From an uncultured Pelagibacteraceae bacterium (GTDB lineage: Bacteria; Pseudomonadota; Alphaproteobacteria; Pelagibacterales; Pelagibacteraceae), in assembly GCA_902606835.1 (NCBI GenBank), contig CACLHW010000001.1, positions 62,001-126,000 of the forward strand: 64,000 bases of DNA. Direction: 5' to 3'. A program made the position numbers and the translations under genes. Positions 1 through 3,141 of the stretch are shown one piece after another; the stretch's first letter is position 1, and every line of letters starts with the position of its first letter. Below the pieces are notes generated by a model. The model was not told where the DNA came from, ran no database searches, and saw only the letters and a program-made list of their open reading frames with translations.

Positions 1-1
1 T

Positions 2-628
2 TTTTCTGAAGTAGAAGATATTGTTTGTAAACACCTTAATCAAAAAACAAAAATAATTTCACTACAACCCAATACGTTAGCTGAAGTCTTTGATGATATT
101 AGGAGAGTCGCAGATGATTTGAAAGTAGATAACGTAATGAGTAATAAGCTTATCAAAAATTTAAAGACAAGGTTAGAAAACATAAAAAACAAAACTTTAA
201 ATCTAAAAAAAAAACCAACAGTAGCTTGCATTGAATGGATCGATCCTCTTATGATTGCTGGAAACTGGATACCAGAAATGGTAACCATATCAGGTGGAAT
301 TGATACTTTTGGAAAACCTGGTAACAATTCTCATTGGGTAAAATTTAATGAAATTAGAAATCATGACCCAGATATAATAATTTTTTTACCTTGCGGATTT
401 GATATTAAAAAAACTAAAAAAGAATTAGATAATCTTTTAAAAAAAGATAGTATTTGGAGCACTTTAAAAGCTTTCAAAAATAAAAAATTATTTGTGGCAG
501 ACGGAAATCAGTTTTTTAATAGACCTGGACCAAGATTAATTGAATCAATAGAAATATTTGCTGAAATAATTCACCCAGAATTATTTAATTTTAAGCATGA
601 AAAAACAGGATGGATCAATTTTAAATGA
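2..628 (+). CDS. BtuF-like cobalamin/metal ABC-type substrate-binding protein, 5'-truncated by window start
   Basis: Frame is open from base 2 (FSEVEDIVCKHLNQKTKIISLQPNTLAEVFDDI...) into the listed ORF; motifs ACIEWIDPLMIAGNWIPEMV and RPGPRLIESIEIFAEIIHPE typical of BtuF-like proteins. Confidence 0.75.
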   Translation, partial: FSEVEDIVCKHLNQKTKIISLQPNTLAEVFDDIRRVADDLKVDNVMSNKLIKNLKTRLENIKNKTLNLKKKPTVACIEWIDPLMIAGNWIPEMVTISGGIDTFGKPGNNSHWVKFNEIRNHDPDIIIFLPCGFDIKKTKKELDNLLKKDSIWSTLKAFKNKKLFVADGNQFFNRPGPRLIESIEIFAEIIHPELFNFKHEKTGWINFK

Positions 629-2994
629 AAAAAATTTTGGCACTTGTAGTTCTGGGTTTGCTTTTCAGTGGAAAAGCCTATGCCGCTGATTGTAATCAAG
701 CATCAGGAGATATTACTGGAACTGAAGGCAGTCCAGATACTACGCTATATGTTTGTGAAGATGACGATGTATTTGTTCTTGACGAAGGTGTTCACACCAC
801 AGCCAGTACAATTCGTGTTAACCTAAGCACAAACAATGCTCAAAATGTTACAATAACTAACTCAGGAACAATTAGAAGGACTGGAGACAATAGTGGTGTT
901 ATTTTAGGGGCAGGTTCTGACACAGTTACAGTTACCAACAACAGCACAGGTACAATTCAAGGCAAGGACCAGGGAATATTTATAAACACAGGAAGCAATT
1001 GGACAATAGATAACTCAGGAACTATTTATGGTGTAGATGCGAAAGGATTTAATATTAAAGGTGGAGACAATACAAAAATTACCAATCAATCAGGTGCTAC
1101 AATTAAAACTGATGGCGCTAACGGAATATTAATATGGGGCACTGACTCTAATGATGGGGAAAATACAGAAATACATAACTATGGAACCATCTCTGCGAAC
1201 ACTAGCACAATCAAAGCTGGAGATTATTCAGACGGAACTACGATAACCAATTATAGCGGCGGAATTATTCAAGCCACTAAAACTACAGGCTCAACAGCGG
1301 CAGTACAGATTGACGGCGACAATACAACAATCACTAACAAAGGAACCATAACTGCTAGCGGCACACAACACTCAATCGAAGTTAAAAACGGAACAACAGG
1401 CACAAAAATTTATGTTGATGGCGCTCCAACATTTACAGGAGAAGTTGATTTTAATAACGCAGCTGCAAATACCACAATGTATTTGGGATGTAGCATGACA
1501 CAAGACACAACTATAGAAATTCATAACAAACCTAGTCTAAACATTACTAATAATCTTTGTGGAAATGATACTTATACAATACAAGATAGTTCCCAAGTAG
1601 CTGATGTAGATAATTCTGAAACAAATGGATACTTAGTCATTGATGAAGGTCTCGAAGTTGTAAGCAATAATGCAAAATATAGAAGTGAAAATGTTGCAAC
1701 AAAATTGAAAGGTTTATTCAGTGCTGCAAACTACATTGATGGAGTTGAACCAGAAGATAAGTTCTTTAGAGTATTTTACAGCAGCGTAAAAAGAGAAAAT
1801 ATGTATAAGGGCAGCATGAAGGGTGTTGTGGGACAATTGAGTCCAATTAACTGGGGAAATATAACGAGTAATATCTTTTTAGGTTACAGCAAACATCATG
1901 GTGATTTTGATAACGGAGAATTTTTAGGGGGAGGAAATTATGCTTTAGGACTAAAGAACGTTTTTACAAAAAATGGATTAAAAGTATCTTTCTCACCCAT
2001 GATAGGACTCAATGATTTAGATCTTACTGATTTTGACTCAGATTCTTCCGCTAAAGTAAAAACTAATTTATTAAGCGAGTTTTTGGCACTTAATGGTAAA
2101 ATAGACAAAGAAATACAAACAAGTGACGATGCTTCGCTTAACTTAAGCGTTCAATCGACTTTAGGTCTACAAAGATTTCCAGATTATTTATCTAGTTTTA
2201 GTGATGGTGATTTGTCAGTTGATGAAGCTATTGAGCAAGTATTAAGTGGAGGGTTTGAGGTTAAATACAACGAGGAACTTGGCAAAGGTTTCATCATCAG
2301 ACCTTATGTTGGTGTAAGCTTAAATCATAACTTAAATAATAATATTGATATGGTAAAAGATGATGATAGCTTACCCGCTTCGCCAGCAGATTCATCTACA
2401 GCAGGTTATTATGTAGGCCTAACTCTAAATAAGGAAGCTAAAGATATTAATTTCGACTTAGATTTAATGTACGGAAACGAAGATGGATTAATTAATCAAA
2501 TTGCGGCTGTTTCATTAACCAAAAAGTTTGGTAAAGTTAAAACTGCAAAGCTTGAGACAAAATCTGACTCTTCAAAAATTGATTTAAGTTCCATTACCCA
2601 AGATCAAGATAAAGATCTAAAAGAAATTGAAGAATTAAAAAAAGCAGTAGAAGAAGTAAAAGCTAAAAATGAAGTATTAAGAACTCAAAACGAGAAGCTG
2701 AAATTTATGGCAGAAAAAGTTATAGAAGAAAATAAAACAAGCAAGGCATTAATTATAGATTTGATTAAAACAAATGAGAAAATCAAATTAGAGAAAGAGA
2801 TGCTGAAAAATCAAATTTTGGAGAAAGAAAGCGAAGAGCTTCGTAGGCAAATTGAAGAAAGCAATCAGGTTAATAAACCTTCTATAAAATTTTTAACGAT
2901 GTTCGGAGCAATCTTTACTTTTGTGGTATTAAGCTTAACTTCTTTAATTGGATCTATTATCAACAGAATTTTTTATAGGCCTATAAAAGCTTGA
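625..2994 (+). CDS. Autotransporter-like surface protein: signal peptide, beta-solenoid repeats, barrel-like region, C-terminal coiled coil and TM helix
   Basis: Signal peptide MKKILALVVLGLLFSGKAYA; about 7 repeats of N-x-T-I-x-N-x-G-T-I type; amphipathic beta-strand-rich middle; heptad-like Lys/Glu-rich C-terminus followed by FLTMFGAIFTFVVLSLTSLIGSII. Confidence 0.7.
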   Translation: MKKILALVVLGLLFSGKAYAADCNQASGDITGTEGSPDTTLYVCEDDDVFVLDEGVHTTASTIRVNLSTNNAQNVTITNSGTIRRTGDNSGVILGAGSDTVTVTNNSTGTIQGKDQGIFINTGSNWTIDNSGTIYGVDAKGFNIKGGDNTKITNQSGATIKTDGANGILIWGTDSNDGENTEIHNYGTISANTSTIKAGDYSDGTTITNYSGGIIQATKTTGSTAAVQIDGDNTTITNKGTITASGTQHSIEVKNGTTGTKIYVDGAPTFTGEVDFNNAAANTTMYLGCSMTQDTTIEIHNKPSLNITNNLCGNDTYTIQDSSQVADVDNSETNGYLVIDEGLEVVSNNAKYRSENVATKLKGLFSAANYIDGVEPEDKFFRVFYSSVKRENMYKGSMKGVVGQLSPINWGNITSNIFLGYSKHHGDFDNGEFLGGGNYALGLKNVFTKNGLKVSFSPMIGLNDLDLTDFDSDSSAKVKTNLLSEFLALNGKIDKEIQTSDDASLNLSVQSTLGLQRFPDYLSSFSDGDLSVDEAIEQVLSGGFEVKYNEELGKGFIIRPYVGVSLNHNLNNNIDMVKDDDSLPASPADSSTAGYYVGLTLNKEAKDINFDLDLMYGNEDGLINQIAAVSLTKKFGKVKTAKLETKSDSSKIDLSSITQDQDKDLKEIEELKKAVEEVKAKNEVLRTQNEKLKFMAEKVIEENKTSKALIIDLIKTNEKIKLEKEMLKNQILEKESEELRRQIEESNQVNKPSIKFLTMFGAIFTFVVLSLTSLIGSIINRIFYRPIKA

Positions 2995-3064: not shown

Positions 3065-3141
<77 letters not shown>

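What the first reader, a model, noticed from the sequence alone, without database searches (positions are those of the whole stretch)
625..2994. Autotransporter-like protein with an extra coiled coil and TM helix after the barrel-like region
Sequence: signal peptide, about 7 degenerate repeats (NVTITNSGTI, NWTIDNSGTI, NTKITNQSGATI, NTEIHNYGTI, GTTITNYSGGII, NTTITNKGTI), a beta-rich region from about residue 370 to 655, then about 110 residues of Lys/Glu-rich coiled coil and a hydrophobic helix FLTMFGAIFTFVVLSLTSLIGSIINRIFYRPIKA. Classical type V secretion proteins end at the last barrel strand, which carries the BAM signal. Inference: the coiled coil may span the periplasm with the helix anchored in the inner membrane, tethering a surface fibre to the cell envelope.
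Basis: partly seen in the sequence, partly recalled or inferred. Interest (0 to 1): 0.6.

Follow-up and report, generated by a model that had tools for sequence, protein, structure and literature searches.

The report
Surface protein possibly spanning both membranes
A small ocean bacterium (SAR11 group) carries a surface protein that is an ordinary self-exporting 'autotransporter' except that, after its outer-membrane barrel, it continues with a long helical rod and a membrane helix, so one chain may link the cell surface to the inner membrane.

Summary
The ORF at 625-2994 (789 aa) is in a SAR11 (Pelagibacteraceae) genome. The model shows a repeat-rich beta passenger, a linker helix, a 12-strand barrel (residues 378-634), an 84-residue helix (662-745) and a hydrophobic helix (754-783). 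The barrel passes the Pfam cut-off for PF03797, and its best solved-structure matches are type Va autotransporters (EspP, EstA, BrkA, NalP). The extension is not an artefact: 13 sequences, down to about 46% identity, have coil plus helix, with a barrel-to-helix span of 111-124 residues and a cationic, acid-free tail, although the helix sequence itself drifts to 32-45% identity. A sister clade (17) has the coil without the helix; another (3) ends at the last strand. Of 30 strong alphaproteobacterial autotransporters, 29 end at the barrel and one in an OmpA domain. Best reading: a type Va autotransporter with a probably dimeric periplasmic coiled coil and an inner-membrane anchor, a one-chain envelope bridge. 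Localisation, dimerisation and tethering are inferred. Closest functional precedent: Veillonella MlaD (reverse order). The gene is accessory cargo beside a tRNA-Met, in tRNA-fragment-flanked cassettes in relatives. New variant of a known kind.

The parts
625..684 (+). Signal peptide MKKILALVVLGLLFSGKAYA (residues 1-20)
   Evidence: Sequence inspection (KK, hydrophobic core, A-Y-A); helix 2-13 in model; same leader in relatives. No signal-peptide predictor was run.
685..1659 (+). Passenger, residues 21-345, degenerate xTITNxGTI repeats, probable beta-helix
   Evidence: Short regular strands at 40-340 in the model, pLDDT mostly 80-95; diverges faster than the barrel between relatives
1681..1728 (+). 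Alpha-helical linker just before the barrel (residues 353-368), as in type Va autotransporters
   Evidence: Model; equivalent helix 327-342 in L015
1756..2526 (+). 12-strand outer-membrane barrel (residues 378-634)
   Evidence: 12 long strands; PF03797 29.8 bits, cut-off 26; best PDB matches EspP, EstA, BrkA, NalP
2488..2532 (+). Last barrel strand with putative internal BAM signal ...INQIAAVSLTKKFG (residues 622-636)
   Evidence: Lines up with the true C-terminus ...LTINKRF of relatives L025-L027
2527..2607 (+). Disordered linker (residues 635-661)
   Evidence: pLDDT below 50, no secondary structure
2608..2859 (+). Long helix with continuous heptads (residues 662-745), predicted coiled coil with Asn at many 'a' and Leu at 'd' positions
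   Evidence: Model helix; heptad register shared by extended relatives
2884..2973 (+). C-terminal hydrophobic helix (residues 754-783), putative inner-membrane anchor
   Evidence: Helix in model; KD19 = 2.14 at residues 761-779; 2.0-3.7 in relatives
2962..2991 (+). Cationic tail NRIFYRPIKA (residues 780-789)
   Evidence: 3 K/R, 0 D/E; 2-4 K/R and 0 D/E in all 11 members checked
3065..3141 (-). tRNA-Met (cat) whose 3' end faces the autotransporter gene; insertion site in relatives
   Evidence: ARAGORN (L053:13065-13141 = window 3065-3141)

Best explanation
A type Va autotransporter with a trans-envelope C-terminal extension. Proposed working: Sec export by the signal peptide; the terminal hydrophobic helix stops translocation and stays in the inner membrane with its cationic tail in the cytoplasm; the barrel is inserted in the outer membrane by BAM from the internal signal in strand 12; the passenger is exported through the barrel and displayed; the helix 662-745 pairs with a second copy, probably as a parallel dimer, and bridges the periplasm, so that surface fibre, outer membrane and inner membrane are held by one chain. 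Shown by computation: the domain order, the 12-strand type Va barrel, and conservation of coil, helix, span and tail charge. Inferred: membrane location of the helix, dimerisation, and the tethering role.
For: Barrel. Extension present in 13 sequences, span 111-124 residues in the 11 measured. Helix sequence falls to 32-45% identity between lineages while hydrophobicity (KD19 2.0-3.7) and an acid-free cationic tail persist; neutral simulation keeps both in only 8-13% of runs. Unbroken heptad register with Asn at 'a' and Leu at 'd', a pattern that favours parallel dimers (own knowledge). An 84-residue helix at 0.15 nm per residue is about 12.6 nm, plus a 27-residue flexible linker, enough for a usual periplasm (inference). 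Relatives without the extension end exactly where strand 12 ends here.
Against: No localisation data. A sister clade of 17 sequences has the coil but no hydrophobic helix, so anchoring is not essential to the coil's role. Coil and helix have low model confidence. dN/dS in helix and tail (about 0.14-0.93) is higher than in the barrel (0.04-0.27), so constraint on sequence is weak. No dimer could be modelled. The gene is accessory: found in 6 of 23 genomes of its genus, many of them incomplete.
Confidence: 0.6

Rival explanations
1. The coil is the working part (pairing of barrels, or binding of a periplasmic partner or the cell wall) and the terminal helix is a secondary reinforcement that some lineages gained or lost.
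For: 17 relatives keep the coil core EENxxxKxLIIxLIKENxK and its register but lack the helix, with no continuation in any frame in those inspected.
Against: In the helix group hydrophobicity, tail charge and span are kept throughout, which a dispensable tail would not need.
Confidence: 0.2
2. The helix is a biogenesis device: it holds the precursor at the inner membrane during export so that the barrel meets BAM, and is afterwards cleaved or irrelevant.
For: A hydrophobic stretch at the end of a Sec substrate would arrest in the inner membrane (established Sec behaviour, own knowledge); the helix sequence is only loosely constrained.
Against: Ordinary autotransporters fold without it (29 of 30 controls end at the barrel); the long conserved coil between barrel and helix would be unexplained; no cleavage motif such as PEP-CTERM was seen on inspection.
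Confidence: 0.12
3. The barrel never reaches the outer membrane; the protein is an inner-membrane-anchored periplasmic protein.
For: A hydrophobic helix normally retains exported proteins in the inner membrane, and outer-membrane proteins rarely have one (own knowledge).
Against: Clear 12-strand type Va barrel with linker helix and preserved strand-12 end; the barrel is under the strongest purifying selection in most pairs.
Confidence: 0.05
4. Inverse-type (type Ve) arrangement in which the part after the barrel is the secreted one.
For: It is the known autotransporter class with sequence after the barrel (own knowledge).
Against: A repeat-rich passenger and linker helix precede the barrel; the best matches are type Va barrels; the part after the barrel ends in a hydrophobic helix.
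Confidence: 0.03

Closest known systems
Type Va autotransporters (EspP, EstA, BrkA, NalP; Pfam PF03797)
   Same: N-terminal signal, passenger, linker helix, 12-strand barrel
   Different: These end at strand 12; here 153 more residues follow (coil and hydrophobic helix). 29 of 30 alphaproteobacterial controls end at strand 12.
Transenvelope MlaD of Veillonella parvula (PMC10665443)
   Same: One chain with an inner-membrane helix, a ~150-residue helical region and an outer-membrane barrel; full-length protein spread over both membrane fractions
   Different: Reverse order (helix first, barrel last), MCE domain, hexamer model, lipid transport; no surface passenger
Autotransporter barrel followed by an OmpA domain (L149, found here)
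   Same: C-terminal periplasmic envelope anchor after a PF03797 barrel
   Different: Would anchor to peptidoglycan through PF00691, not through a coil and membrane helix
SlpA of Deinococcus radiodurans (PMC9388160)
   Same: Connector of the outer membrane to an inner layer, with coiled coil and barrel (abstract and term counts)
   Different: Connects to the cell wall rather than the inner membrane; SLH domain at the other end (own knowledge)
SAR11 'autotransporters' of hypervariable region 1 (SAR11_0042, 0044, 0046; PMC2217521)
   Same: Same bacterial group, variable location, each listed with one TM helix
   Different: The passages read do not describe the domain order; whether that TM helix is the signal peptide or a C-terminal anchor was not tested

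Membership tests
Type Va autotransporter | 12-strand translocator barrel in one chain with a preceding linker helix | tested here: met
   two models; PDB matches; PF03797 29.8 bits against cut-off 26
Type Va autotransporter | Signal peptide and N-terminal passenger | tested here: met
   Sequence and model; signal peptide by inspection, no dedicated predictor
Type Va autotransporter | Passenger is a beta-helix | tested here: inconclusive
   Regular short strands at 40-340 in the model; the listed fold matches cover mainly the barrel
Type Va autotransporter | Protein ends at the last barrel strand with a terminal aromatic residue | tested here: not met
   153 residues follow strand 12; homologues L025-L027 do end there. 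Filed therefore as a variant, not a standard member.
Type Va autotransporter | Passenger displayed on the surface | not testable with these tools
   Needs surface labelling
Trimeric autotransporter (type Vc) | Four strands per chain, trimeric barrel | tested here: not met
   12 strands in one chain
Inverse autotransporter (type Ve) | Barrel first, passenger after it | tested here: not met
   Passenger and linker helix precede the barrel
Transenvelope MlaD | N-terminal TM helix, MCE domain, C-terminal barrel | tested here: not met
   Opposite order; no MCE match in the Pfam scan
Inner-membrane to outer-membrane tether (functional class) | Domains resident in both membranes | not testable with these tools
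   Architecture consistent; localisation needs fractionation

The most novel reading that the evidence does not exclude
SAR11 bacteria exchange, as tRNA-flanked cassettes, an autotransporter that is a paired one-chain bridge from the cell surface through the outer membrane and periplasm to the inner membrane, a tethering design not found described for type V secretion.
Probability: 0.45. Interest if true: 0.7.

Novelty: new variant of a known kind. Interest (0 to 1): 0.52.

Why it matters
Outer-membrane proteins are generally thought unable to carry a hydrophobic helix, because it would hold them in the inner membrane. A conserved family that has both a barrel and such a helix, separated by a coil of near-constant length, would show how one chain can be sorted to two membranes. 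It would also give some of the very small, abundant SAR11 cells a covalent envelope tether joined to a surface fibre. The three natural end-states (none, coil, coil plus helix) make the question testable by simple truncations.

Tried and rejected
Assembly or fusion artefact: rejected, the same architecture is in many independent single-cell and metagenome assemblies. Frameshifted or split helix downstream in the coil-only clade: no open continuation in any frame in the five inspected; weak read-through matches containing several stops may be remnants, but AT-rich chance is not excluded. Phage origin: no match in phage records or viral contigs. Whole-protein Pfam and NCBIfam scans gave only chance coiled-coil or membrane hits; the barrel alone passes PF03797. 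Type Vc and Ve assignments rejected by strand count and order. Conserved operon partner: none, neighbours differ between genomes. Paper searches for an autotransporter with coil plus inner-membrane helix gave no precedent in the open library; subscription papers were not covered. The cryo-tomography paper on Pelagibacter was not held, so the SAR11 periplasm width could not be checked. The coil was modelled only as a monomer.

Full report
What it is. The ORF 625-2994 lies on contig C1 of a 965 kb, 36-contig genome. Its closest named relatives are uncultured Pelagibacteraceae single cells at 90-91% identity, so this is SAR11.

Anatomy. Foldseek against the PDB places the barrel with EspP, EstA, BrkA and NalP (best E 1.5e-11; NalP 1uyo TM-score by target 0.82). 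A second model, of L015 (46-48% identical to the window protein), repeats the order: strands 354-607, helix 638-720, helix 725-757, with the same PDB matches. The two alignments share many rows, so the second model is a replicate on a diverged sequence, not fully independent evidence. The barrel portion alone scores 29.8 bits for PF03797 against a cut-off of 26.

The extension. In relatives lacking it (L025-L027) the protein ends at the position of F635 here (...LTINKRF), so the added residues begin right after the last strand. Heptads are continuous from residue 668; position 'a' is Asn in 52 of 121 cells and 'd' is Leu, Ile or Val in 78 of 121 for the coil-plus-helix group. The distance from strand 12 to the hydrophobic core is 111-124 residues in the 11 sequences measured. 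Tail: 2-4 Lys/Arg and no Asp/Glu in 11 of 11. Helix identity falls to 32-45% between lineages. A simulation of neutral drift with AT-rich mutation and only stops removed keeps both the hydrophobicity and the tail in 8-13% of runs; several divergent lineages all keep both, which argues for selection on the property. The simulation is simple and ignores the tree, so this is support, not a formal test.

Distribution. Barrel tree of 33 sequences: coil-only (17) and no-extension (3) are each one fully supported side of a branch; coil plus helix (13) occupies the rest, beside the no-extension clade; two changes explain all three states. The direction of gain or loss is not resolved because the root is not known. 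The full extension was found only in Pelagibacteraceae and in one genome of another family in the class (G550, two neighbouring copies; 3% contamination and a SAR11-like neighbour gene, so mis-binning is possible). As a control, 30 strong PF03797 hits from across the class were checked: 29 end within 37 residues of the Pfam match, at a strand, and one carries an OmpA domain.

Setting. In this genus the gene often sits between a CoA-binding/fumC side and a tRNA-Met-purE side, with the tRNA 3' end facing the gene. In L003 a 53-nt exact copy of the tRNA 3' part and the full tRNA flank the gene in a 2622-bp unit; L002 has three such fragments (spacings 2622 and 1015); other genomes have other cassettes at the same site (Methylase_S plus N6_Mtase, MORN, SNase, SHOCT proteins). 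The window itself has only the full tRNA-Met, with no second copy found. Other copies of the gene lie at other loci. So it behaves as exchangeable cargo.

Mechanism and limits. The C-terminal side of a 12-strand type Va barrel is periplasmic (established), so the coil must start in the periplasm. A hydrophobic helix ending a Sec substrate should stop in the inner membrane (established for Sec). Joined by about 120 residues these two give an envelope bridge; this step is inference. Asn at 'a' favours parallel dimers (own knowledge). The coil-only clade shows that the coil has value without the anchor. The precedent that one chain can sit in both membranes is MlaD of Veillonella, supported by fractionation (PMC10665443). 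SAR11 autotransporters are recorded in hypervariable region 1 (PMC2217521) and as a large coastal adhesin (PMC12636525), without this architecture in the passages read. The genome also has one OmpA-domain protein of 160 aa, probably Pal, so it is not without an ordinary envelope link.

Noticed in passing
window 3065-3141 (-); L002:4818-8507; L003:4818-7517; L057, L058, L093-L096: tRNA-Met 3'-fragments in tandem delimit small cassettes at one site across the genus (four tRNA-region matches in a row in L093), with varied cargo and no recombinase recognised in the stretches read; resembles tRNA-based islands such as tycheposons.
   Followed up: partly
L004:1237, L006:4962, L095:1943, L089:578, L110 and others (23 hits in 15 of 23 genomes): A near-invariant 38-60 nt sequence ATGAAAAAACTTTTAGGGATCTTGGTTCTGGGTTTGTT, encoding the signal peptide MKKLLGILVLGLL, starts at least 13 unrelated protein groups, synonymous sites included, with differing upstream DNA; some copies run straight into a stop. 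It looks like a mobile or gene-converted signal-peptide element.
   Followed up: partly
L149:1501-2745: An alphaproteobacterial autotransporter barrel followed by an OmpA peptidoglycan-binding domain.
   Followed up: partly
window 625-2994 compared with L012: Synonymous divergence is far lower in coil and helix (0.17, 0.08) than in barrel (0.53) and passenger (1.18), suggesting mosaic recombination within the gene.
   Followed up: no
L064, L066 (G550:C1:4692-8475): Two neighbouring copies of the coil-plus-helix autotransporter with near-identical C-terminal tails.
   Followed up: no
window 1-628: Upstream periplasmic-binding-protein-like gene (PF01497) whose stop codon overlaps the autotransporter start (ATGA), suggesting coupled translation; not seen beside the relatives whose flanks were read.
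   Followed up: no
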